Position numbers and translations under genes: made by a program. The notes below the pieces were generated by a model. It worked only from the letters and a program-made list of their open reading frames with translations, was not told where the DNA came from and did not search any database. A stretch of DNA of 64,000 bases from Amycolatopsis tolypomycina (GTDB taxonomy: Bacteria > Actinomycetota > Actinomycetes > Mycobacteriales > Pseudonocardiaceae), in NCBI RefSeq assembly GCF_900105945.1, contig NZ_FNSO01000004.1, forward strand, positions 3,844,001 through 3,908,000, given 5' to 3'. Positions 53,422 to 64,000 of the stretch are shown here, piece after piece (positions within the stretch are counted from its first letter, which is position 1; each line of letters begins with the position of its first letter).

Positions 53422-55221
53422 TCAGGCCGGCGTTTTCACCGGTGGGGCCGCATGTCGGCGGGCGCGGTGGGCGGCCATCCGCACCGGCGCGTTGGCCACG
53501 CCGAAGCCGCGGTACCCGCCGATCCGCTGCACCACCTCGAAGAACACCCGCGCCCCGGCCAGCGCGGTGTAGAAGTGGAGGAACTCGCCCTCGGCGTCCC
53601 GGTCGTAGAGCACCGAGTGCTCCCGCAACGCGGCGAGCCGGGCCGGCGGCAGCTCCAGCCGGGCGGCCAGGTCGTCGTAGTAGTTGCCGGGGATGTCCAG
53701 CAGCGGGGCGCCCGCCGCGCGCATCGCCGCGGCCGCGGCCAGTGCGTCCGTGCAGGCGAACGCGACGTGCTGCGGTTCGGGGACCGCCGGCGCCCATTCG
53801 CCGCGGCGGACCACGGCCGCCTCCAGCGTCAGCCGGACGTCCCCCGCCGCCACCGCACGGCTGCGCACCAGCCCGAACGGCGCCGCGTACTCCGTCACCG
53901 GCGACGGCGTCAGCCCGAACACCGCGTGGTGGAACAGCGCGGCTTCCTCGAAGTGGTCGAAGGGCTGGGTGAGCGCCACGTGATCGATCCCGAAAACGCC
54001 CGCGCCGCCTGCCGTTTCCCCGGTCGGCACGAAGTCCTCGCGCCAGTCGTCGCCGCAGAGGAACACCTGGGTGCCGTCCGGCGCCGAGACCGACGCCAGG
54101 TCGGCCTCGCGCGGGCCGCGCACCCGCGGCAGGACCGGCGCCCGCAGCGCTTCGGCCCGGCGCGCCGAGCGGACCGGGTCGGTGCTGGCCAGCGCGACGG
54201 CGCCGACGGCACCGTGCGCCGCGCCGCCTTCGTTGACCACCACCCGGGCGTCGCCCTGCTCCCACAGCTCGACCGGCTTGGTGCGGTGCACGCCGGTGCG
54301 CGCGAACCCGAGGCTCGCGAGGACGCGCCCGCCGCCCGGGTCGGTGACGACCTCGGCGAACGCGTGCCCGGTCAGGGCCGGCGCGGCCGGCAGGTCGAGC
54401 ACGCCCAGGGACTCCTGCAGCACCAGCAGCGACCGCAGCGCGTCGACGGCGGCGGGGCGCGGGTCGGCCTGGCGGAACACGTCGTTGAAGACTTCGAGGG
54501 ACAGCGGCCCGCGGTAGCCCGCGGCCAGCACGTGCCCGGTGAACGCCGTCAGGTCGAAGTCGCCCTGTCCCGGGAAGAGCCGGTGGTGCCTGCTCCAGGG
54601 CAGCACGTCCATCGGCAGCTTCGGCGCGTCGGCCAGCTGCAGGAAGAAGATCTTGTCGCCGGGGATGGCGCGGATCGCCGCCGGGTCGTGGCCCTTCGAC
54701 AGGATGTGGAAGCTGTCCAGGCAGACGCCGAGCGCGGGGTGGGCGGCGCGGCGGACGATGCGCCAGGCGTGCTCGTACCCGCTGACGTGCCTGCCCCAGG
54801 CCAGTGCCTCGTAGGCGACCCGCATCCCGCGTGAATCGGCCAGCTCCGCCAGCGCGTGCAGCTGTTCGGCGGCCAGTTCGTCGTCGTCGATCGCTTCGGG
54901 CGAGACCGACGAGCAGACCAGGATCGTGTCCGTGCCGAGCTCGGCCATGACGTCGAACTTGCAGGCCGCCCGGCGCAGGTTGGCCCGGTGCAGGTCAGGC
55001 GGGACGGCTTCGAAGTCGCGGAACGGCTGGTAGAGGTCGATCGACAGGCCGAGGTCGGCGCAGCGGCGACGGATTTCGGCCGGGCTCGACGGGGACACCA
55101 GCAGGTCGTTCTCGAACAGCTCGACGCCGTCGAACCCGGCCGCGGCGGCCGCGGCGAGCTTGTCCTCCAGGGTGCCGGACAGGCAGACGGTGGCGATGGC
55201 GGTGCGCGGCTCAGGCAGCAC
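53422..55221 (-). CDS. qsuB: 3-dehydroshikimate dehydratase fused to an HPPD-like domain
   Basis: A 599-residue two-domain protein. Residues 1 to about 280 are a sugar-phosphate-isomerase TIM barrel with GFDGVELFENDLLV, KFDVMAELGTDTILVCSSV, GVCLDSFHIL and LSLEVFNDVFR, matching the metal-binding 3-dehydroshikimate dehydratase of QsuB/QuiC. Residues about 295-590 are a vicinal-oxygen-chelate/hydroxyphenylpyruvate dioxygenase-like domain (GIDHVALTQPFDHFEEAALFHH, ...EFLHFYTALAGARVFFEVVQR). Corynebacterial QsuB has the same fusion and size. It converts 3-dehydroshikimate to protocatechuate. GTG at 55221 has GGGGAGG; the gene overlaps the upstream dehydrogenase by 11 bp. The role of the second domain is unclear. 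Confidence 0.9.
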   Translation of the reverse strand: MLPEPRTAIATVCLSGTLEDKLAAAAAAGFDGVELFENDLLVSPSSPAEIRRRCADLGLSIDLYQPFRDFEAVPPDLHRANLRRAACKFDVMAELGTDTILVCSSVSPEAIDDDELAAEQLHALAELADSRGMRVAYEALAWGRHVSGYEHAWRIVRRAAHPALGVCLDSFHILSKGHDPAAIRAIPGDKIFFLQLADAPKLPMDVLPWSRHHRLFPGQGDFDLTAFTGHVLAAGYRGPLSLEVFNDVFRQADPRPAAVDALRSLLVLQESLGVLDLPAAPALTGHAFAEVVTDPGGGRVLASLGFARTGVHRTKPVELWEQGDARVVVNEGGAAHGAVGAVALASTDPVRSARRAEALRAPVLPRVRGPREADLASVSAPDGTQVFLCGDDWREDFVPTGETAGGAGVFGIDHVALTQPFDHFEEAALFHHAVFGLTPSPVTEYAAPFGLVRSRAVAAGDVRLTLEAAVVRRGEWAPAVPEPQHVAFACTDALAAAAAMRAAGAPLLDIPGNYYDDLAARLELPPARLAALREHSVLYDRDAEGEFLHFYTALAGARVFFEVVQRIGGYRGFGVANAPVRMAAHRARRHAAPPVKTPA

Positions 55222-56059
55222 GGGCGGCCTCCCCTTCCAGGGCGTCGAAGTGGCGCAGCATCCGGCCGGGGTCCGGGTCGGCGCCGGTGAACAGCCGGAA
55301 CGACTCGGCGGCCTGCAGCACGACCATGCCGCCGCCGTGCAGCACCCGGCACCCGCGGGCGCGGGCGGCGGCGAGCAGCGCGGTTTCCAGCGGGCGGTAG
55401 ACGATGTCGGCGACCCACAAATCTTCGTGCAGCAGCTCGGCGGGGACGGGCGAGCCGGGGTGGGCGGCCATGCCGGTCGGGGTGGCGTGCACGAGCCCGT
55501 CGGCACGCTCGAGCGCGGTCAGGTCGCCGGTGACCGCGCGGCCCGGGCCGAACCGCCGGTCGAGGGCCGCGGCCAGGTGGGCACTCCGGGCGCCGTCGAC
55601 GTCGTGCACGGTGAGGCGTCCGGTGCCGAGGGAGAGCAGCGCGTGCGCGACCGCCGCGCCCGCTCCCCCGGCGCCGAGCAGCACGACGTCGTCCATGCGG
55701 ACGTCCGGCAGGCCGCGGCTGAGGCTGCGGGCGAACCCGGTCGCGTCGGTGTTGTGGCCGATCGCGCGCCCTTGGCGGAAGACGACGGTGTTGACCGCCC
55801 CGAGCGCGGCGGCTTCCGGCGAGAGCTCGTCGAGGTGCGGGACGACGGCCTGCTTGGCCGGGTGGGTGACGTTGAGGCCGTCGAACCCGGCGAGCCGGGC
55901 GGCGGCGAGGACGTCGGCGACCGGGCGGCCCAGGACGTCGAGGTCCAGCAGCCGGTAGAGGTAGCGCAGGCCCAGCTCGTCGGCCTCGCGCTCGTGCAGG
56001 GCCGGGCTCGCGGACGGCCCGATGCCCGTGCCGACAAGCCCGATCAAGTAGCTGGTCAC
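55211..56059 (-). CDS. Shikimate/quinate dehydrogenase (AroE/QsuD family)
   Basis: A 282-residue dehydrogenase. The substrate domain has GPSASPALHEREA and the FDGLNVTHPAKQAVVPHLDEL segment with catalytic Lys and Asp partners; NTVVFRQGRAIGHNTDATGF follows. The Rossmann motif is LLGAGGAGAAVAHAL, and the residues after the second strand (HDVDGARS) have an Asp, which favours NAD over NADP, fitting a catabolic enzyme. GTG 56059 has a GGAGGG site. It overlaps the QsuB-like gene, so the pair converts quinate/shikimate to protocatechuate precursors. It is not part of a biosynthetic aro cluster here. Confidence 0.9.
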   Translation of the reverse strand: MTSYLIGLVGTGIGPSASPALHEREADELGLRYLYRLLDLDVLGRPVADVLAAARLAGFDGLNVTHPAKQAVVPHLDELSPEAAALGAVNTVVFRQGRAIGHNTDATGFARSLSRGLPDVRMDDVVLLGAGGAGAAVAHALLSLGTGRLTVHDVDGARSAHLAAALDRRFGPGRAVTGDLTALERADGLVHATPTGMAAHPGSPVPAELLHEDLWVADIVYRPLETALLAAARARGCRVLHGGGMVVLQAAESFRLFTGADPDPGRMLRHFDALEGEAARAA

Positions 56060-56077
56060 GCCGCACCCTCCGAACTT

Positions 56078-56092
56078 AATGTACGAACTAGT
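56078..56092. promoter_or_regulatory. Candidate TetR operator in front of the shikimate dehydrogenase gene
   Basis: AATGTACGAACTAGT, whose reverse complement is nearly identical to the element at 56866-56880 (13 of 15 positions). It lies between the divergent TetR and dehydrogenase genes, within a wider dyad of TAC and GTAC elements. Confidence 0.6.
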
Positions 56093-56173
56093 ACGTTCAC
56101 GGTAGCGCGGCGTGCGTTCGAGCGGAAGGGCTGCACTAGAGTGGGGGCGTTCACCTGCAGCGGAGGGAGCCCG

Positions 56174-56815
56174 GTGGCCGCACCATCGTCGGAGGCCGAG
56201 CGCCAGCGCGACAAGGACCGCACGCGCGCCGACATCCTCGCCGTGGCCACGCGGGAGTTCGCGGACAAGGGCTACACCGGCGCCCGGGTCGACGAGATCG
56301 CCGCCCGCACCAGCACCACCAAGCGGATGATCTACTACTACTTCGGCGGCAAGGAACAGCTCTACATCGCCGTGCTGGAGCGGGCGTATTCCGCCCTCCG
56401 CGCCTCGGAACAGCAGCTCGACGTCGAGCACCTGGATCCCGAGGAGGCACTTCGGCAGCTGGCGGCACTGACCTTCGACCACCACCAGGCCAACCCCGAC
56501 TTCATCCGGCTGGTCAGCATCGAGAACATCCACCGCGCGGAGCACCTGTCGCAGTCGGAGATCCTGGCCGGACTGGCCGACCCGGCCCTCGGCGGGATCA
56601 CGCGGATCCTCGAGCGAGGCCACAAGGCCGGCCTGTTCCGGGCGGACGCCGACGCGCTCGACGTCCACATGATCATCAGCTCGTTCTGCGTGTTCCAGCA
56701 GGCGAACCGCCACACGTTCCAGGCGATCTTCGGCCGCGACATGCTCGATCCGGCCCGTCGCGAGCACTACCGCACGATGCTGGGCGACCTGCTGATCAAC
56801 TACCTGACCGCCTGA
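56174..56815 (+). CDS. TetR-family regulator of the quinate/shikimate unit
   Basis: A 213-residue regulator. The HTH lies at about residues 16-62 (RADILAVATREFADKGYTGARVDEIAARTSTTKRMIYYYFGGKEQLY in pieces), and the C-terminal ligand domain includes FDHHQANPDFIRLVSIENIHRAEHL, typical of the TetR_C group that recognises aromatic-type ligands. GTG at 56174 has GGAGGGAG. It is divergent from the dehydrogenase/QsuB genes and upstream of the transporter, and candidate operators flank both. It probably represses them until a shikimate-pathway ligand binds. Confidence 0.9.
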   Translation: MAAPSSEAERQRDKDRTRADILAVATREFADKGYTGARVDEIAARTSTTKRMIYYYFGGKEQLYIAVLERAYSALRASEQQLDVEHLDPEEALRQLAALTFDHHQANPDFIRLVSIENIHRAEHLSQSEILAGLADPALGGITRILERGHKAGLFRADADALDVHMIISSFCVFQQANRHTFQAIFGRDMLDPARREHYRTMLGDLLINYLTA

Positions 56816-56865
56816 AATCCGCCTCTTGACACCCGGCGCCCCGGTCTCGCACTCTCTATTAACTA

Positions 56866-56880
56866 ACTAGACCGTACATT
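56866..56880. promoter_or_regulatory. Candidate TetR operator in front of the transporter gene
   Basis: ACTAGACCGTACATT, matching the reverse complement of 56078-56092 at 13 of 15 positions. It lies 53 bp before the transporter GTG. A TTGACA at 56826-56831 is a possible -35 element, but no well-spaced -10 was found. Confidence 0.55.
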
Positions 56881-56933
56881 GCTTCCCCGCCGAACTCTGC
56901 GCAACGAAGCACGGATGTCAGGAGATCGTTCCC

Positions 56934-58247
56934 GTGACCGGATCGATGCCCCGCAAGGCGGCGCTGGCCGCCTGGATCGGCAGCGCGCTCGAGTACTACG
57001 ACTTCTTCATCTACGGCACCGCCGCCGCGCTCGTGTTCGGCAAGGTGTTCTTCCCCGCCTCCTCCCCCGCCACCGGCACCCTGCTGGCCCTGGCCACCTT
57101 CGGCGTCGGCTACCTCGCCCGGCCGGTCGGCGCGTTCGTCCTCGGCCACGTCGGCGACCGGTTCGGCCGCAAGCGGGTGCTCGTCTTCACCCTGCTGCTC
57201 ATGGGGTTCGCGACGTTCTGCGTCGGCTGCCTGCCGACGTACGGGAGCATCGGCGTCCTCGCGCCGGTCCTGCTGGTCGTGCTCCGTCTGCTGCAGGGCC
57301 TTTCCGCGGCCGGCGAGCAGGCGGGCGCGAACTCGATGTCGCTGGAACACGCCCCGGAGCACCGGCGCGCCTACTTCACCAGCTTCACCCTGAGCGGCAC
57401 GCAGGCCGGGCAGATCCTGGCCACCGCGATCTTCCTGCCGGTCGCCGCGCTGCCCGCCGAGGACCTGCTGACCTGGGGCTGGCGCGTGCCGTTCTGGGGC
57501 AGCGCGCTCGTGGTCGTCGTCGGCTTCGTGATCCGGCGCAAGCTCGACGAGACGCCGGTGTTCGCCCGCACCGAGGTGGCGAAACTGCCGGTCGCGCTGC
57601 TGTTCCGGCACCACTGGGCCGACGTCCTGCGCGTGGTCGTCGCGGCGACGATCGCCTCGGTCAGCACCATCTTCACCGTCTACGCGCTGAGCTACGCGGT
57701 CAACACGATCGGCCTCGCCCGCACGCCGATGCTGTGGGTGGGCGTGCTGGCCAACGTCGTCGCGCTGGCGGCGATCCCGCTGCTGGCCGGCCTCGCCGAC
57801 CGCGTCGGGCGCAAGCCGGTGTTCATCACCGGCTGCCTGGCCTGCGGGGTGCTGATCTTCCCGTACCTGTGGTCGATCTCGATCGGCTCGTACGCGCTGC
57901 TGTTCGGGCTCGGCATCGTGCTGTTCGGGGTGGCCTACTCCGGCGTGAACGGGGTCTGGCCGTCGCTGTACGGCGAGATGTTCAGCGCCCAGGTCCGGTT
58001 GTCCGGCATGGCGATCGGCACCCAGATCGGCTTCGCGGTGGCGGGTTTCGCCCCCAGCGTGGTCGCGGCGATCGGCTCGGGCCGCGACGACTGGCTCGGC
58101 GTCGCGATCTTCACCGCCGCGGTGTGCGTGGTGGCGGCCGGAGCCGCGGCGACGGCGCGCGAAACCTACCGGGTGCCGACCGCGCAGCTGGGCGGCCGGA
58201 CACTCGCGGCACCGTCCACTGTGGTCGCCTCCACTGTGGACGGCTAG
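56934..58247 (+). CDS. MFS transporter of the metabolite:H+ symporter (shikimate transporter-like) type
   Basis: A 437-residue 12-span transporter. MHS-family motifs are clear: WIGSALEYYDFFIYG at the N-terminus, GHVGDRFGRKRVL (MFS loop 2-3), LRLLQGLSAAGEQAG and GLADRVGRKPVF (loop 8-9). ShiA-type members import shikimate or dehydroshikimate with protons. GTG 56934 with an AGGAG site. It follows the TetR gene by 118 bp and shares its operator, so it completes an uptake-plus-degradation unit. The last 4 bp overlap the convergent gene at 58244. Confidence 0.92.
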   Translation: MTGSMPRKAALAAWIGSALEYYDFFIYGTAAALVFGKVFFPASSPATGTLLALATFGVGYLARPVGAFVLGHVGDRFGRKRVLVFTLLLMGFATFCVGCLPTYGSIGVLAPVLLVVLRLLQGLSAAGEQAGANSMSLEHAPEHRRAYFTSFTLSGTQAGQILATAIFLPVAALPAEDLLTWGWRVPFWGSALVVVVGFVIRRKLDETPVFARTEVAKLPVALLFRHHWADVLRVVVAATIASVSTIFTVYALSYAVNTIGLARTPMLWVGVLANVVALAAIPLLAGLADRVGRKPVFITGCLACGVLIFPYLWSISIGSYALLFGLGIVLFGVAYSGVNGVWPSLYGEMFSAQVRLSGMAIGTQIGFAVAGFAPSVVAAIGSGRDDWLGVAIFTAAVCVVAAGAAATARETYRVPTAQLGGRTLAAPSTVVASTVDG

Positions 58248-58615
58248 AACGGAACGCCGACCGCGGCGGCCAATGCCCGCACCGCGGTCCACAGCCCGGC
58301 GCCGGCGGTCGCGAGGCCGCCGGCGTCCCGGAGCAGGTCACGGGCCCGGCGCACCTTCGCGCCCGCGTCCTTCCCGCCGTGCACGACGTCCCGGTCGACC
58401 TCGTCGAGGGCGTCGTGCACGGCGTCCTTCGTGGCCGGCGGCAGCCGGGCCGCGTCGAGTTCCGCGCGGACCGACCGCACCAGGGCGGCGACCTGCCGCG
58501 CGTCGAAGCCGCGGTGGATCTCCTGGTGTCCACCGTGGACGGTGTTGATGTCGCCGTGGACGGCGTTGTTGACCGTCCCGGCCCGGACGTCGCCGTGGAA
58601 GTGGATGCCGTCCAT
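58244..58615 (-). CDS. Small protein with GDV-AGT-NNA motif, function unknown
   Basis: A 123-residue protein. The N-terminus repeats short Gly/Asp/Asn units (FHGDVRAGTVNNAVHGDINTVHGG in pieces: FHGDVRAGTVNNA, HGDINTVHGG), then a helical part (RQVAALVRSVRAELDAA, VRRARDLLRDAGGLATAG) ending in a short hydrophobic helix. The repeat unit recurs in the FHA protein just upstream. Its ATG directly abuts the FHA stop (TAG-ATG). In bacterial conflict proteins such beta-arc repeats act as adaptors, but that assignment is only an analogy. Confidence 0.8.
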   Translation of the reverse strand: MDGIHFHGDVRAGTVNNAVHGDINTVHGGHQEIHRGFDARQVAALVRSVRAELDAARLPPATKDAVHDALDEVDRDVVHGGKDAGAKVRRARDLLRDAGGLATAGAGLWTAVRALAAAVGVPF

Positions 58616-59377
58616 CTAGCGCCTCCCGTTCCGGCGCCGCTCGCGCGCCGCCTTGGCCATGACCAGTCCGATCAGCAGCACGACCCCGCCGAGCCCGAAG
58701 AGCGCGAACCCGACCACCCCGAGCGGCACGCCGTCGAAGACCTCCGGCCCGAGCAGCGGCGGCGGCGCGTCGAACGACCCGGACGAGACCGCGTCGGAGC
58801 CCGCCTTGATGAACCGGAAGATCACCGACGCCCAGATGCCGAACCCGGCCAGGATCGTCAGCAGCCCCAGCACCATGACCGCGCGGCCGGCGCCCCGCCC
58901 GGTGGCCAGCTCCGAGATCATCTGCCCTTCGGGCGTGCTGAACTCGTAGTTGTGCTGCTGCCGGTGGTCGTAGCTGTTGTTGACGTCGCGCCCGGCGTTG
59001 TTGATCGTCCCGGCGGACACGTCCCCGAAGGAGACCCCGCCGGACGGCGAACGCTGCCAGGTCCGGGTGTGCGCGGCCCCGGACCCGTCCGCGTAGACGG
59101 CGGAGACCGGCCCGAACTCGAGCCGGTCACCGTCGCGCAGCGGGTGGTCCTGCCGCGGCGCCAGGCGCCGCCCGTTGACCCAGGTCCCGTTCCGCGACCC
59201 GGCGTCGGCCACCCAGGTGCCGCGCGCGTCCTGCCGGATCCAGGCGTGCCGCAGCGACACCTGCTCCGAGCGCAGCCGCAGGTCAGCGTCGGGCCCGCGC
59301 CCCACCAGCCACGAACCCCGGCGCACCTCCAGGCGCACCCCGGACCCACCGAGCGTCTCGATCCTCGCCCCGCCCAT
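58616..59377 (-). CDS. FHA-domain membrane protein
   Basis: A 253-residue protein. Residues 10-90 are an FHA phosphothreonine-binding domain: SWLVGRGPDADLRL, SLRHAWIR (Ser/His) and DAGSRNGTWVNG (NGT). Residues 113-140 carry SFGDVSAGTINNAGRDVNN, the motif shared with the downstream protein. Two membrane spans follow (about 166-189 and 217-241), with a basic C-terminus. It probably recruits a phosphorylated partner, for example a Ser/Thr kinase substrate, to the membrane. ATG 59377 is preceded by GGAGGAG. No kinase gene is in view. Confidence 0.88.
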   Translation of the reverse strand: MGGARIETLGGSGVRLEVRRGSWLVGRGPDADLRLRSEQVSLRHAWIRQDARGTWVADAGSRNGTWVNGRRLAPRQDHPLRDGDRLEFGPVSAVYADGSGAAHTRTWQRSPSGGVSFGDVSAGTINNAGRDVNNSYDHRQQHNYEFSTPEGQMISELATGRGAGRAVMVLGLLTILAGFGIWASVIFRFIKAGSDAVSSGSFDAPPPLLGPEVFDGVPLGVVGFALFGLGGVVLLIGLVMAKAARERRRNGRR

Positions 59378-59393
59378 CGGCCCTCCTCCCGCC

Positions 59394-59422
59394 GCACGGC
59401 TCCCTTACAGGAAGAGCCGTGC
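59394..59422 (-). terminator. Hairpin after the PH-like gene
   Basis: GCACGGCTC (59394-59402) and GAGCCGTGC (59414-59422), a 9-bp perfect stem, 61 bp after the stop at 59483. It separates that gene from the FHA gene. Confidence 0.6.
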
Positions 59423-59482
59423 GACGGGCCGGGGATATCCGGCGAACGGGTGAACCCGTTCAGACCTTCGGCGCCGGCTCGC

Positions 59483-60313
59483 TCAGCCTTCCTGGTACTC
59501 GGCCCAGGACGGGACGCGACCGTTCCCGGTCCGGAGGAAGCTGTGCGGCTCCAGCAGGAGCGCCTGGATCCGCGGGAAGAGCTGCATCAGCGGTGTGTGG
59601 CAGCGAAAGTTCCAGGCCCACAGCCAGTCGACCATGTCGTCCACGGAGTTGAGGACGCGATCCTCCGGGCCGCCACCGTCGAACCGGTCGTGGAACCGCC
59701 GCGCCGCATCGTCGTCGCCCCACTGGCGGAAGTACTCGTCTGCCTGACCCATCACCATCACGAACACCCGCTCGATCAGGTTGACGACGTTCTCCGGGTT
59801 CGCCGGGACACCTGTTTCGGTCAGCAGGTCCAGGTAGAAACCGGGGTACAGGATCGGGACGGCCCGACCGTCGGTCGCCGCGAACCCCGAGGCGGCGGTT
59901 TCGACCGGCGGCCGGCGCCGGGCCAGCTTCTCGATCGCCTCCCCGACGGAATACGCGACGCCGGGTCGCTGGAACTTGACCGTGGTTCCCGGCCCCGCGA
60001 CCACGAGGAGGAACGACCCGGTGCCGGTCGGGCGCACCTCGACGTCTCGGATCTCCTCCGGCGTGACCGAACGGTCCAGGACCCGGCCGCCCTTGCGCAT
60101 GACGAGCAACCGGCGATCGGTCACCACCAGGGTGTGCGTCGCGGTGAAGTCCTCCACGGCGATCAGCCGGACAGTCTCGCCGTCCTGGAAGCACGACCGG
60201 ATGTTCGGCTCGCCCTTCGCGATCATCCGGCGGTGGTGTCCCGCGTCATCGGCCAACGCAGCACGAAAGTCCTCCGACAACGATTCTCCGCCTCCGAAGA
60301 GTCCCACGACCAT
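59483..60313 (-). CDS. PH-like domain hypothetical protein
   Basis: A 276-residue soluble protein. Residues about 40-125 (ETVRLIAVEDFTATHTLVVTDRRLLVMR...EIRDVEVRPTGTGSFLLVV) look like a bacterial PH/YdjM-type beta-barrel. The C-terminal half is helical, with YPGFYLDLLTETGVPANPENVVNLIERVFVMVM and many aromatic residues (DWLWAWNFRCHTPL). I know no named family for the C-terminus. ATG 60313 is only 2-3 bp from the AAGGAG site; GTG at 60307 is better spaced and may be the true start. It diverges from the NUDIX-like gene. Confidence 0.75.
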   Translation of the reverse strand: MVVGLFGGGESLSEDFRAALADDAGHHRRMIAKGEPNIRSCFQDGETVRLIAVEDFTATHTLVVTDRRLLVMRKGGRVLDRSVTPEEIRDVEVRPTGTGSFLLVVAGPGTTVKFQRPGVAYSVGEAIEKLARRRPPVETAASGFAATDGRAVPILYPGFYLDLLTETGVPANPENVVNLIERVFVMVMGQADEYFRQWGDDDAARRFHDRFDGGGPEDRVLNSVDDMVDWLWAWNFRCHTPLMQLFPRIQALLLEPHSFLRTGNGRVPSWAEYQEG

Positions 60314-60415
60314 TCTCCTTCCTGGACAACCCGCAAATCACTGAACAGTCGATGTTTCGGCAGAAGCTGTTACGATCACCGAGGTCACGATTCCGGACGA
60401 CGGGAGGCTGTAATC

Positions 60416-61105
60416 GTGAAACCCCCACCGACATTCCTGCCTGCTCGCCGGGGACGGGTGCGGATCTCGTTCAGCGTCCTGCTCCGCCTCGCCGATGACG
60501 ACCGTTTTGTACTGTTCGACGCCCCCAAACGTCCGGGCGCCTTCGGACCGCCGGGCGGAGTGATCAAGTTCTTCCCCCCGGCCGCCCGGATCCTGGACGC
60601 GCTCGGGTTCCAGCCCGAGCGCACGGGTTCTCCGCACCACAAGCTCAGAGCGGACCTTCGCGGCACTCTCCCGGCCGGCGCGCTGCGCCGGTTCCGAACC
60701 TGGTTCGCGACGGGGGCGTACCGCGAAACCGCTGACGAGTGCCTACGTCGCGAACTGCACGAAGAGCTCGCCGAGGTCGGCGTCCACCACTTGGACAGGA
60801 TTGTCCCGGAATTGGAGTTCACCAACGTCCGCACCGTCCAAGAAGGTCCGCAATCCGTGCCAGGCAAACACTACCGGCAGTTGCGCGGATTCGACGTGCG
60901 CGAGCTGGCGATGACGAATCATGCCGCGCGACGCCTGAGCCGGGAACTGATTGAAGTGGCCGAAGACGAGGCGTATCCGGGCGTCCTGCTGGCTGGTTTC
61001 GACGACATCGCCCACGGTCGCCTCGATCGCGCTCTGATCGCCCCGCAGAGCGCGTTCCTCGCCGGTCCGTCACGGCTCGCCCCGGATCTGCCGCCGCTGC
61101 GATGA
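60416..61105 (+). CDS. NUDIX-like protein (SMODS-associated-NUDIX type)
   Basis: A 229-residue protein. The GAFGPPGGVIKFF segment (42-53) and TADECLRRELHEELAEVG (105-122) form a NUDIX-like core with an atypical Nudix box (RELHEE present, spacing altered). This resembles the SMODS-associated NUDIX domain of nucleotide-second-messenger conflict systems, recalled from family pattern, not checked. GTG 60416 with GGGAGG. A TACGAT -10 (60371-60376) lies 17 bp from GTCGAT. The stop overlaps the next ATG by ATGA, so it is made together with the cyclase-like protein, and it may hydrolyse or sense the nucleotide. Confidence 0.7.
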   Translation: MKPPPTFLPARRGRVRISFSVLLRLADDDRFVLFDAPKRPGAFGPPGGVIKFFPPAARILDALGFQPERTGSPHHKLRADLRGTLPAGALRRFRTWFATGAYRETADECLRRELHEELAEVGVHHLDRIVPELEFTNVRTVQEGPQSVPGKHYRQLRGFDVRELAMTNHAARRLSRELIEVAEDEAYPGVLLAGFDDIAHGRLDRALIAPQSAFLAGPSRLAPDLPPLR

Positions 61106-62232
61106 CCGATTCCGAACGGCGCGTCGCCGAACTGCGCACCCCGTCCCGGAAACGCGCTCTCGGTGAAGTGACGATCGGCGTGCCGACCGCGCACCCGGCC
61201 GAGCCCGACGAGCCGGCCCTCGACGCCCCCGCAGGGACGGGCCTGGTGGAGATCCGTCAGCAGTACGCCTGGGAAACCGCCGGTCACCGCGCCCGGATCG
61301 GGGCCGTGTACCTGATCGCCGGGTTCTCCGATCCGCGGGTGCGCGTCCACGAACTCTCGGGCACGACGGCCGAGCCGGCCACCGAGATGGTCGTCTCCGA
61401 ACTGCCGCAAGGTTGCGGCTGGCTCGTCGGCGATCCACTCGGCGCGAGCGCGGCGCCCCGGACCGCCGAAGTCCGGGCCACCCTGTGGGTACCGTTGGAC
61501 CAAGCGGAGCTGGCCGGCGTCAACCGGCTCGACGGAACCCTGCTGCGCCCTGCTTGGCACCGCCGACGGCTCCACGCCGGCACCGGCCCGGTCCCGTTCT
61601 CCGTCACCCTGCCGTCGGGATGGGGACAGCGCCCCGTGCCGCCGCCCCGGCCGGTCGGCCACCGGAGCCCGGCCGTGCGCCTCTGCATGGCGGCCGACAC
61701 CGTGGCGTACGGCCGCTTCACCACGGGGGAAGCGGCCCGGTCGCAAGAACGGCTCGTGGAGGTACTGGCGAAGGCGAGGCGAGCCGCCGGAATCCCGGAA
61801 GACGAAGTCGACCTCCAGCCCTCCGGCGACGGCCAGTTCGCGATTCTGCCCACCGGGCTGGACGAGACGGTCGTCATCCCGCGGCTCGTCGAAGGTGTCC
61901 GCACTGCACTGGCCACCGTCAACGCCGACCTGAGTGACCGGGCGCGGCTGAGGCTGCGGGTGGCGCTGCACCGAGGCCACGTCGCCCCGGGCGCGAACGG
62001 CTGGGTCGGCGCCGTGACCGTCGCCGTGCACCGGCTGCTCGACTGCGCGCCGTTGAGGGCCCGGCTCGTGCAGGACCGCTCGGCCGATTTCGCCCTGATC
62101 GTCTCCGACGTGCTCTTCGGCGATGTCATCGTCGGCGGCGACCTCGACGCGGCGGCGTTCGAGCCGGTCGACGCGGTCCTCCCCGACAAGGCCTTCGCCG
62201 AACGCGCATGGGTGCACACACCCCAGCTCTGA
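61102..62232 (+). CDS. Class III nucleotide-cyclase-like protein
   Basis: A 376-residue protein. The N-terminal part (about 45-175) is an uncharacterised beta-rich domain. The C-terminal part (about 190-345) follows the adenylate/guanylate cyclase fold: RLCMAADTVAYGRF (Asp199, first metal position), QPSGDGQFAILP (Asp243, second metal position) and RLRVALHRGHVAPGANGWVGAVTVAVHRLLD. Both metal Asp positions survive, so cyclisation of a nucleotide is possible; purine/pyrimidine selectivity cannot be judged. Coupled to the NUDIX-like gene by ATGA and convergent with the CHAT protease gene (5 bp between stops). The pairing suggests a signal generator for a defence or stress response. Confidence 0.72.
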   Translation: MTDSERRVAELRTPSRKRALGEVTIGVPTAHPAEPDEPALDAPAGTGLVEIRQQYAWETAGHRARIGAVYLIAGFSDPRVRVHELSGTTAEPATEMVVSELPQGCGWLVGDPLGASAAPRTAEVRATLWVPLDQAELAGVNRLDGTLLRPAWHRRRLHAGTGPVPFSVTLPSGWGQRPVPPPRPVGHRSPAVRLCMAADTVAYGRFTTGEAARSQERLVEVLAKARRAAGIPEDEVDLQPSGDGQFAILPTGLDETVVIPRLVEGVRTALATVNADLSDRARLRLRVALHRGHVAPGANGWVGAVTVAVHRLLDCAPLRARLVQDRSADFALIVSDVLFGDVIVGGDLDAAAFEPVDAVLPDKAFAERAWVHTPQL

Positions 62233-62237
62233 CTTCC

Positions 62238-63491
62238 TCACTGGCCGTGGTACAGCACCGGGACGTGCCGCCCGTGCAGGCGCTCGTCACCCAGAGCCAT
62301 CGCCGCTCGGGCCCTCTTGAACGCGGGCTCGATCGGCAGGCCCGCGACCAGCGCCTGGTAGAACCCGACGCTGAAGTCCGTGGCCGAACGGTCACCGAGC
62401 CAGCTGCGCATGCCGATGACGTAGCTGATGTGTTCCGCGAGGGCTTCGGCCAGCCGCGCACTGTGACAGGCGTTGACGATCACGCACTCCACGGTGTCCG
62501 AGACTTCCTCGAACAACGCGGCCAGCCCCGGCACCGAAAGCACCTGGCCTTCGCCTCCCGCGGCCTCGGCGAGGAACTGCCCGTCCTCGGTGCCGTGCCC
62601 CGAAAGGTGCACGATCCGCGGCGAGAAGTCGAGCAGGGCCTGAGTCAGGTCCCGCACGCGCAGCGCACCGCGTTGGCGGAGCACGAACCGGTCCCGGTGC
62701 CGGCCCATCCGCAGCGTGTCCTCCACATCACGCAACTCGGCGTCCCAGCTGATCCGCTCGGTGTCGGTCGGATTGGCCGCCAGGTAGAGGACTTCCACGG
62801 TGCCGGGCTGCTGCTGCCCGAGGTGCCCCACCGCGACGGTTCGCCGTACTTTGCGCTCGACCGGGCCACCCGCTCCGTTCGCGCACACCGCCGTCAGGTG
62901 GACGGGAACGGCCCGCCCCGTTTCCCTGGCCAGGATGTGGAACTCGAATGATTCCCGCTCCCCGGGCGGGAGATGGCCGAGCGAGACGGCCGTCCCCTTC
63001 GGGTCGACCGAGAACGGTCCCTGCAGGCTGAGCCGCCCCCAGGTGATGGCGGCGGCTCCGGTGTTGACGATCTCGCCCTTGACGGCGTCCCACTCCCCGC
63101 ACGCGACGCGGACGGTCGAGAGTTCGATCTCGAACCTCGGCGGCTCCGCCGGCGGGAGCTCCACGGGCGGCGCCACGTCGAGCACGGCCTGGAAGTCGGT
63201 GATGCGGTGACCGCCGCCGACGTCGTCGCGGAACGAGAAGTTCGCACTGGTCGCCGTCCAGGAGCCCGGGCGCAACGGCCGGACCTTGACCGTCGTCGTC
63301 CACTCGGTGCCCGCGTCGAGCCGGGGCACCGCGAACTCCTTGTTGCCCCGCAGGGCCGGGATCTGCGCCGGCAGCCGCAGCGCGAAGTGGATGTTCGTGC
63401 ACGGCTTCGGCCCGTCGTTGCGCAAGTGCACGACGATGTTCGCGTCCTCACCGGCGTGGAGCCCGCCGGACGTGATTTCGGCGTGGATCAT
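62238..63491 (-). CDS. CHAT-domain (caspase-like) protease with N-terminal Ig-like domains
   Basis: A 417-residue protein. Two N-terminal immunoglobulin/CARDB-like beta domains (about 1-108 and 115-225; NIVVHLRNDGPKPC, GEIVNTGAAAITWGRL) precede a CHAT caspase-fold peptidase (230-417). The catalytic dyad is intact: His299 in VHLSGHG and Cys342 in VIVNACHSA. Such proteases cleave specific partners when a sensor is triggered, often in conflict systems. ATG 63491 overlaps the upstream zinc-ribbon gene stop (ATGA). Neighbours are a nucleotide-cyclase-like gene and adaptors, consistent with an effector role. Confidence 0.88.
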   Translation of the reverse strand: MIHAEITSGGLHAGEDANIVVHLRNDGPKPCTNIHFALRLPAQIPALRGNKEFAVPRLDAGTEWTTTVKVRPLRPGSWTATSANFSFRDDVGGGHRITDFQAVLDVAPPVELPPAEPPRFEIELSTVRVACGEWDAVKGEIVNTGAAAITWGRLSLQGPFSVDPKGTAVSLGHLPPGERESFEFHILARETGRAVPVHLTAVCANGAGGPVERKVRRTVAVGHLGQQQPGTVEVLYLAANPTDTERISWDAELRDVEDTLRMGRHRDRFVLRQRGALRVRDLTQALLDFSPRIVHLSGHGTEDGQFLAEAAGGEGQVLSVPGLAALFEEVSDTVECVIVNACHSARLAEALAEHISYVIGMRSWLGDRSATDFSVGFYQALVAGLPIEPAFKRARAAMALGDERLHGRHVPVLYHGQ

Positions 63492-63733
63492 CGTGTCCTC
63501 CCGTCCATGAGCGTGGCCCGCGGGTGATGGGCCCGGCGGCAGCTCTCGCAGTGCAGCGCGATCCGGTCGAGCGGGATCAAGCCACCGGTGCCGGTCACCG
63601 CGAAGGCGTCGTCGAGCACGGCCTGCTGGTGCGACCGGCAGAGCGGTTTCCCGCAGTGGTGGCAGACGGCGTCGACCACGACCTTTCCCTCGCCGTCTTC
63701 CTCGGTGTCGCAGTCACTGCACTTCCAGGCCAT
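63488..63733 (-). CDS. Small zinc-ribbon protein
   Basis: An 81-residue protein with two zinc-binding pairs, WKCSDCDTEED and VCHHCGKPLCRSHQQ, plus a third HCESCRRAHH. This gives a treble-clef/B-box-like arrangement. It may bridge proteins or bind nucleic acid. Coupled to the CHAT protease by ATGA and 1 bp after the stop of the gene upstream, so the three are one operon. Confidence 0.8.
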   Translation of the reverse strand: MAWKCSDCDTEEDGEGKVVVDAVCHHCGKPLCRSHQQAVLDDAFAVTGTGGLIPLDRIALHCESCRRAHHPRATLMDGRTR

Positions 63734-63734
63734 T

Positions 63735-64000
63735 TCACCCCTCCCAGTTCCGGTTGCCGCCGTAGCCTTCGTCCAGTTCGGCGATGTCGCGATCGATGTG
63801 GGCGAGGATTTCCCGGCAGACGTCTTCGGAGATCCGCCGATTCAGCAACGCGTCCTCGAATCTCTCGCGCCGCCGTTTCAGCTCCTGGATTCGCACGTCC
63901 GACGCGCGGTGCCTCGCCCCGACGTGGTGCTCGTCGTGCGACCGGCCCGGTTTGCGCTGCTGCAGGGTCTCCGAGATGATGCCCTGCAAGCCGTACCAGA
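63735..64000 (-). CDS. C-terminal part of a helical protein, runs off the window
   Basis: The frame is open to the window edge and starts outside; 87 residues are visible after the first WYG. The tail is charged and helical (VRIQELKRRRERFEDALLNRRISEDVCREILAHIDRDIAEL), probably coiled coil or SHOCT-like. A TTG at 63989 could be a start but has no ribosome-binding site, so a longer protein is more likely. It is the first visible gene of the zinc-ribbon/CHAT operon. Confidence 0.6.
   Translation of the reverse strand, partial: WYGLQGIISETLQQRKPGRSHDEHHVGARHRASDVRIQELKRRRERFEDALLNRRISEDVCREILAHIDRDIAELDEGYGGNRNWEG

What the first reader, a model, noticed from the sequence alone, without database searches (positions are those of the whole stretch)
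58244..64000. Candidate new conflict (immunity) system: CHAT protease, nucleotide-cyclase-like, NUDIX-like, FHA and zinc-ribbon genes
Seen: two compact operons face each other. One (+) makes a NUDIX-like and a class III cyclase-like protein with a 4-bp overlap; the other (-) makes a coiled-coil protein, a zinc-ribbon protein and a CHAT protease, also coupled. A FHA membrane protein, a small motif-sharing protein and a PH-like protein lie beside them. Known: CHAT proteases and nucleotide-signal enzymes are recurrent parts of bacterial conflict systems. Inference: the cyclase-like protein makes a nucleotide signal, the NUDIX-like protein senses or removes it, and the CHAT protease is the effector. 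I know no described system with exactly this set.
Basis: partly seen in the sequence, partly recalled or inferred. Interest (0 to 1): 0.85.

Follow-up and report, generated by a model that had tools for sequence, protein, structure and literature searches.

The report
Cyclase–CHAT protease immune gene cluster
An actinobacterium (closest named relatives: Amycolatopsis) carries a conserved nine-gene cluster in which a protein predicted to have a nucleotide-cyclase fold, and so to make a small alarm signal, sits with two CRP-type regulators that would read the signal and a CHAT protease that is likely the weapon; beside the protease is a protein whose predicted fold matches the cargo-binding part of animal and yeast vesicle-coat adaptors, and no function here has been tested in the laboratory.

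The parts
60416..61105 (+). Sa_NUDIX protein (229 aa), no hydrophobic segment; predicted to hydrolyse or bind the nucleotide signal
   Evidence: PF18167 E 1.8e-33; E-x7-RE-x2-EE kept in 18 of 18 aligned homologues; the only Sa_NUDIX in the genome
61102..62232 (+). class III nucleotide-cyclase-fold protein (376 aa): N-terminal all-beta domain (about 7-169) + cyclase domain (about 186-376), both as predicted
62238..63491 (-). CHAT protease (417 aa) with N-terminal Ig-like (NEW3/CARDB-type) region; likely effector; His299/Cys342 present
   Evidence: PF12770 5.2e-11, PF10633 1.2e-6; PDB 8tl0 E 3.2e-15; dyad read; TIR replacement in L066
63488..63733 (-). 81-aa zinc-ribbon-like protein, 4-bp overlap with CHAT
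   Evidence: conserved Cys/His pattern in 7 of 7 aligned; no Pfam match above cut-off
63735..64000 (-). C-terminal tail of the 632-aa protein (whole gene 63735-65633, beyond the window): CxxC zinc-ribbon-like motifs, hydrophobic hairpin at residues 73-112, then a region related to the C-terminal half of the 518-aa protein. Upstream in the same direction, beyond the window end (window numbering continued; add 3844000 for G000:C4): 518-aa protein 65664-67220; CRP1 67252-67950; CRP2 68012-68704; TCAD9/STAND 68772-73178
   Evidence: relation of the 632- and 518-aa proteins hhalign probability 85.5, E 5.7e-6 over 196 columns (33.7 with fewer sequences)

Best explanation
The nine genes form one conserved cluster that likely works as an infection-response system: a protein with a predicted class III cyclase fold would make a cyclic mononucleotide, two CRP-type regulators would sense it and switch on the protease genes, and the CHAT protease would be the effector. 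Step by step. (1) Trigger, inferred: the TCAD9-kinase/STAND protein would act as an NLR-like sensor. (2) Signal: predicted cyclase fold and conserved metal-binding residues are shown; activity and product are not. (3) Receptors: CRP1 and CRP2 carry cNMP-binding and HTH domains and a phosphate-binding cassette (shown); they differ at the base-reading position (Asp versus Thr), so they may read two ligands or act as activator and modulator (inferred). (4) Output: the 518-aa protein (predicted adaptor-like fold), its membrane-anchored 632-aa relative and the zinc-ribbon protein would hold the Ig-CHAT protease and present or select its substrate (inferred from gene order, predicted fold and the TIR swap); cleavage would stop infection or kill the cell. 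(5) Off-switch: the NUDIX keeps its catalytic glutamates and likely clears the signal, or reads it as a second receptor.
For: NUDIX-cyclase / CHAT-ZnR-632-518-CRP1-CRP2-TCAD9 set in 7 of 7 genus loci with a strong 518-aa gene, of 80 genomes searched; the cyclase orthologue (354 bits or more) is in exactly those 7, next best 97 bits. Same genes in G027, with TCAD9 on the other side. Eleven longest-contig lengths, the window's included, appear in all three homologue lists for cyclase, 518-aa and CHAT (same contig inferred from equal length). Cyclase fold; residues. Effector swap: G243 keeps 518-632-ZnR but has TIR_2 (7.4e-14) behind a related N-terminal region. Wider family, 39 loci: CRP within the locus in 24, CHAT or caspase in 26; caspase overlapping the cyclase by 4 bp in 15 of 18 loci with that gene although ten such genomes hold only 35 PF00656 matches in all. 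CRP cassette GE[LM]...PR[SA]A in 14 of 14 Amycolatopsis copies; CRP1 Asp 8 of 8, CRP2 Thr 8 of 8 at the base-reading site. One NUDIX-cyclase pair lies beside pPIWI-RE defence genes (L061).
Against: No activity is known for any protein here. The asparagine of class III cyclases is I/V/T in 72 of 72, so the domain could be weak or only bind nucleotide; Kaur et al. note inactive versions in vWA components. The upstream alignments showed no clear CRP palindrome, only an unexplained GCCGAACGGG element (read by eye). 15 of the 39 wider loci have no CRP and 13 no CHAT or caspase by these models, so the wider module is loose. CRP1 of G027 departs from the cassette (DEM...RTA). In G243 the 518-632-ZnR module runs with no cyclase, NUDIX or CRP detected in the 20 kb fetched, so the output module does not need this signal; the shared N-terminal region there is weak (26 bits; CARDB E 0.0094). 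One of the seven genus copies (G738) has an in-frame stop in the 518-aa gene. The genus co-occurrence may partly reflect shared descent. CRP proteins often regulate metabolism or development (recalled).
Confidence: 0.5

Rival explanations
1. Direct-activation system like CBASS or SAVED-CHAT: the nucleotide binds the NUDIX (as receptor) and through it, or an unrecognised site, switches CHAT on post-translationally; the CRP proteins only set expression levels.
For: Sa_NUDIX is named for SMODS and here matches PADLOC models labelled Effector/2TM; the only PDB sequence match of the CHAT protein at E up to 0.1 is a CHAT protein, 8tl0, recalled as SAVED-CHAT; in other loci the cyclase overlaps a caspase gene by 4 bp.
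Against: The NUDIX keeps its catalytic glutamates in 18 of 18, which fits a hydrolase better; NUDIX is on the other strand from CHAT; no nucleotide-binding domain was recognised on CHAT, ZnR, the 632-aa or the 518-aa protein.
Confidence: 0.25
2. A developmental or metabolic cNMP-CRP circuit, with CHAT as a processing protease, not immunity.
For: CRP/FNR regulators and class III cyclases are ordinary regulators (recalled); the best PDB sequence matches of CRP1 are CRP/FNR-family regulators, 3h3u and relatives, recalled as mycobacterial CRP.
Against: Patchy presence (7 of 80 in the genus, 4 of 297 in the family, 1 of 394 in the class, that one being the window's own genome), rearranged gene order in G027, TIR swap, Sa_NUDIX and TCAD9 families, pPIWI-RE neighbour in L061.
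Confidence: 0.15
3. The cyclase domain is catalytically dead and only binds a nucleotide as a switch.
For: Asn position is I/V/T in 72 of 72 and the purine-selecting Lys/Glu position is Gln in 68 of 72 (positions inferred from spacing); inactive cNMP cyclases occur in vWA components.
Against: Both metal aspartates and the arginine invariant in 72 of 72; metal-pair spacing of 44 equals that of EaPycC D102/D146.
Confidence: 0.2
4. Two unrelated systems that happen to be neighbours.
For: The two strings are convergent and so separately transcribed; G243 has the output module alone; NUDIX-cyclase occurs without the 518/632 genes in other loci.
Against: Exact co-occurrence in 7 of 7 genus genomes and in G027; genus cyclase copies are 53-80% identical to the window's.
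Confidence: 0.05

Closest known systems
Pycsar (PycC cyclase + CNBD effector)
   Different: The CNBDs are on HTH regulators, not on a TIR or membrane effector; a NUDIX, a CHAT protease and adaptor-like proteins are added; pyrimidine specificity is unproven.
VMAP/vWA-MoxR ternary systems and other multicellular-bacterium conflict systems (Kaur et al. 2020, PMC7159879)
   Same: The cyclase domain matches the N-terminal part of VMAP proteins (P0110, E 1e-8); TCAD9 is Pfam's 'Ternary complex associated domain 9'; that paper links CRP-like cNMP-recognising factors to peptide-processing systems and describes cyclase domains taking the place of caspase domains.
   Different: No MoxR, vWA or VMAP-C match in the genes scanned; cyclase, NUDIX and CHAT are separate genes.
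CBASS with Sa_NUDIX (2TM-NUDIX) effectors (link recalled)
   Same: Same NUDIX family.
   Different: No CD-NTase/SMODS match in the genes scanned and no hydrophobic segment on the NUDIX.
SAVED-CHAT (PDB 8tl0; identity and CRISPR link recalled)
   Same: CHAT domain alignable over both catalytic residues.
   Different: Ig-like region in place of SAVED; CRISPR arrays or cas genes were not searched for.
Mu-homology domain of clathrin/COPI adaptors
   Different: No detectable sequence similarity; bacterial; extra C-terminal region; peptide binding untested.

Membership tests
class III nucleotide cyclases | class III catalytic fold | tested here: met
class III nucleotide cyclases | two metal-binding Asp and transition-state Arg | tested here: met
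   D199, D243, R311 in 72 of 72; equivalence by motif and spacing
class III nucleotide cyclases | conserved Asn four residues before the Arg | tested here: not met
   I 52, V 16, T 4 of 72; Asn present in VMAP-type P0110/P0111
class III nucleotide cyclases | cyclase activity | not testable with these tools
   needs biochemistry
Pycsar | pyrimidine-specific cyclase pocket | tested here: inconclusive
Pycsar | effector fused to a cyclic-nucleotide-binding domain | tested here: not met
   CNBDs sit on HTH_Crp_2 proteins; CHAT has none
CBASS | CD-NTase (SMODS) gene in the operon | tested here: not met
   no such Pfam match among the 12 locus proteins scanned, nor PADLOC match among 9 of them
CBASS | Sa_NUDIX domain | tested here: met
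   PF18167 E 1.8e-33
VMAP ternary system | MoxR + vWA + VMAP-C proteins | tested here: not met
   none among the locus proteins scanned
CHAT (clan CD) proteases | CHAT domain with His/Cys dyad | tested here: met
   PF12770; H299, C342; both present in the 7 CHAT proteins aligned
CRP/FNR cNMP-responsive regulators | CNBD + HTH_Crp_2 + G-E...R-[SA]-A cassette | tested here: met
   PF00027 6.3e-17 and 4.5e-18, PF13545 8.7e-15 and 2.2e-14; cassette in 14 of 14 Amycolatopsis copies; CRP1 of G027 departs from it
NUDIX hydrolases | RE-x2-EE catalytic core | tested here: met
   18 of 18 aligned homologues
mu-homology domain (adaptin mu) | MHD fold | tested here: met
   predicted model only, pLDDT 82.6, rmsd 4-5.5, best TM-score 0.49 by target
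mu-homology domain (adaptin mu) | recognisable MHD sequence profile | tested here: not met
   no adaptor family among the matches of 57 members to Pfam at E up to 5

The most novel reading that the evidence does not exclude
A bacterial immune protease complex built on a clathrin-adaptor-like (mu-homology) protein pair: the 518-aa protein and its membrane-anchored 632-aa relative select peptide-tagged cargo at the membrane for an interchangeable Ig-domain effector (CHAT here, TIR in G243), and a cyclase-made cyclic mononucleotide, read by two CRP regulators of different base specificity and erased by an Sa_NUDIX, switches the whole complex on by transcription. It would place the adaptor-mu fold in bacterial immunity.
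Probability: 0.25. Interest if true: 0.92.

Novelty: new variant of a known kind. Interest (0 to 1): 0.72.

Why it matters
The nucleotide-signalling phage defences I know of (recalled) switch on a pre-made effector. This cluster instead puts two nucleotide-binding transcription regulators in front of the protease genes and next to a cyclase, so a transcriptional immune relay becomes directly testable. It also brings a class III cyclase family that Pfam does not recognise (no cyclase match in any of 72 members) and a bacterial family whose predicted fold matches the cargo-binding subunit of eukaryotic vesicle adaptors, in a setting where CHAT and TIR effectors are exchanged.

Tried and rejected
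Rejected as members: FHA (58616-59377), small (58244-58615) and PH-like (59483-60313) genes; among the loci examined FHA and small recur only in L005, the PH-like gene only in L082. Rejected: chance neighbourhood. Tried without result: a CRP palindrome or shared operator before the operon (alignments read by eye: only GCCGAACGGG, exact in 6 of 8 loci and one base off in 2); sequence search of PDB for cyclase and NUDIX (none) and for the 518-aa family (one match, E 0.25, taken as chance); class-wide search for the 518-aa family (only the window's genome, 1 of 394). The first 518/632 profile comparison was weak (probability 33.7) and improved with more sequences (85.5). The 1082-aa CHAT gene beyond TCAD9 was found in the window's genome and L086 only, of 7 genus loci (phmmer), so I left it out of the core.

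Literature searches. No listed title or start of abstract describes this gene set; searches returned no paper, and searches returned mostly irrelevant ones because generic terms matched. Papers: PMC7159879 abstract, outline, passages and section 33; PMC11224242 and PMC8195603 passages only; all others search listings only. The library lacks most subscription papers, so 'not described' is not proven.

Limits: gene calls in loci come from my own simple caller, which for instance missed the window's NUDIX gene altogether; domain hits on all frames came from phmmer and home-made HMMs. Duplicated contigs (L057, L058, L063) and L084 were left out of the table. My CHAT HMM is weak on large TPR-type CHAT proteins, so the CHAT count may be low. 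The regular expression missed or misread several distant CRP copies; L082 CRP1 was read by eye. My notebook line says the CRP cassette is kept in all 14 aligned; that overstates it, since CRP1 of G027 departs. CyaC residue roles, the E. coli CRP register, the species of 3h3u, the CBASS link of Sa_NUDIX and the identity of 8tl0 as SAVED-CHAT are recalled.
Full report
What is in the window. The window is G000:C4:3844001-3908000 of a 10.36-Mb genome; the best named relatives of its cyclase are from Amycolatopsis. NUDIX (60416-61105 +) and a 376-aa protein (61102-62232 +) overlap by 4 bp; CHAT (62238-63491 -) and an 81-aa zinc-ribbon-like gene (63488-63733 -) overlap by 4 bp; one base further lies a 632-aa gene cut by the window end. 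Beyond the end, in the same direction, come a 518-aa gene, two CRP-type regulators (PF00027 + PF13545) and a 1468-aa protein with TCAD9 (1.4e-80), a kinase-type HGDLNARN motif and a P-loop. Divergent from TCAD9 lie a 126-aa gene and a 1082-aa CHAT gene.

One system. In the genus, 518-aa genes are strong in 7 of 80 genomes (an eighth match has 20 bits; its locus, L084, carries no other system gene, only a 22.6-bit MFS match). The cyclase orthologue is in exactly the same 7 (354 bits or more; next 97). The other six copies fall into two groups by cyclase identity to the window (77-80% and 53-56%); shared descent is not excluded. G027, another genus, has the same genes with TCAD9 on the opposite side. 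In the family the 518-aa gene is in 4 of 297, a 632-aa match in 7 of 297 of which 3 are full length, and a cyclase-domain match of any distance in 141 of 297. In the class sample the 518-aa gene is in 1 of 394, the window's own genome.

Effector logic. The fourth family member, G243, keeps 518-632-ZnR but has no cyclase, NUDIX or CRP detected in the 20 kb fetched, and it is not among the 141 genomes with a cyclase match. Its CHAT slot holds a 272-aa protein with a related N-terminal region (26 bits to the window's CHAT protein; CARDB E 0.0094) and a TIR_2 domain (7.4e-14); a patatin-type gene is next in line. A swap of one effector enzyme for another behind a constant region is a usual sign that this gene is the weapon (recalled rule). 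A second TIR relative is P0279 (the search profile contained the G243 protein).

Wider family. Among the 39 loci found with the cyclase profile, HMM searches find NUDIX next to the cyclase in 8, TCAD9 in 8, a CRP regulator in 24 and a CHAT or caspase domain in 26. In Micromonospora, Actinoplanes and Paractinoplanes loci the cyclase overlaps a caspase gene (PF00656 4e-15 in L017) by 4 bp, in 15 of the 18 loci that hold this gene cluster; ten such genomes of 7.0-11.3 Mb hold only 1-7 PF00656 matches each, 35 in all. In L040-L043 a CRP gene lies directly before the cyclase. So 'cyclase + caspase-fold protease', often with a CRP receptor, is a recurring theme, and the window's cluster is one elaborate form of it. 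Against this, 15 of the 39 have no CRP and 13 no CHAT or caspase by these models.

The receptors. Both CRP proteins keep the cassette that holds the cyclic phosphate (14 of 14 Amycolatopsis copies; CRP1 of G027 departs). Passages of PMC11224242 give the base-reading position: Ser/Thr for cAMP in CRP, Asn for cUMP in PycTIR, Glu for cGMP in XC_0249. By alignment to 3h3u (recalled as mycobacterial CRP, and the E. coli register is recalled), CRP2 has Thr in 8 of 8 and CRP1 has Asp in 8 of 8 loci. Two receptors with different base preference is therefore a prediction; 3h3u itself has Asn there, so the position does not decide the ligand alone.

Mechanism. Shown: gene order, co-occurrence, domain content, conserved catalytic residues, predicted folds, TIR swap. 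Inferred: TCAD9/STAND sensing, cyclic mononucleotide synthesis, CRP-driven transcription, CHAT as effector, NUDIX as eraser, immune role. The commitment is to a transcriptional relay; the main rival is direct activation through the NUDIX.

Known or new. Cyclase, CRP-like, NUDIX, FHA and caspase-type domains are described in bacterial conflict systems by Kaur et al. 2020 (passages, section 33; the word CHAT does not occur there). No title or abstract start listed describes this set, and searches listed nothing; the library is partial and most listed bodies were not read. The cluster fails defining tests of Pycsar (receptor on effector), CBASS (CD-NTase) and VMAP systems in the genes scanned, but is likely to work like the first two. 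Hence: new variant of a known kind, with one potentially more novel element, the adaptor-like pair.

Noticed in passing
58244-59377: The small protein and the FHA membrane protein share a GDVxAGTxNN segment, like the short amyloid-type signalling motifs of bacterial immune proteins (recalled, not tested); the two genes abut and recur together in L005.
   Followed up: partly
L066 8708-9756: In G243 the CHAT slot holds a related N-terminal region fused to TIR_2; a 1163-aa patatin-type gene lies at the other end of the string.
   Followed up: yes
window numbering 73199-76866 (beyond the end; L085 1200-4867): Divergent from TCAD9 lie a 126-aa gene that recurs near TCAD9 in other loci and a 1082-aa CHAT gene: a second CHAT domain within 15 kb of the first.
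   Followed up: partly
L061 8797-16626: A NUDIX-cyclase pair lies directly beside pPIWI-RE defence genes.
   Followed up: no
L012 11207-15247: NUDIX-cyclase beside TCAD9 with a B12-binding radical SAM gene and a nucleoside deoxyribosyltransferase-type gene.
   Followed up: no
between CRP2 and TCAD9 in 7 loci and before CRP2 in L056 (about window 68750, beyond the end): Conserved GCCGAACGGG element, exact in 6 of 8 loci and one base off in 2; not an obvious CRP palindrome and not explained.
   Followed up: partly
L040, L041, L043: CRP > cyclase > roughly 690-730-aa > 250-aa gene string; the two L040 products downstream have no Pfam match; these CRPs have Asn at the base-reading site, as in the cUMP receptor PycTIR.
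   Followed up: no
53422-58247: From the sequence alone this looks like a quinate/shikimate catabolism cluster (TIM-barrel + HPPD-like fusion, shikimate dehydrogenase-like, TetR-like, MFS); not searched.
   Followed up: no
L083 (G738), 518-aa gene: This copy of the 518-aa gene carries one in-frame TGA in the search result, so that locus may be decaying or have a sequencing error.
   Followed up: no
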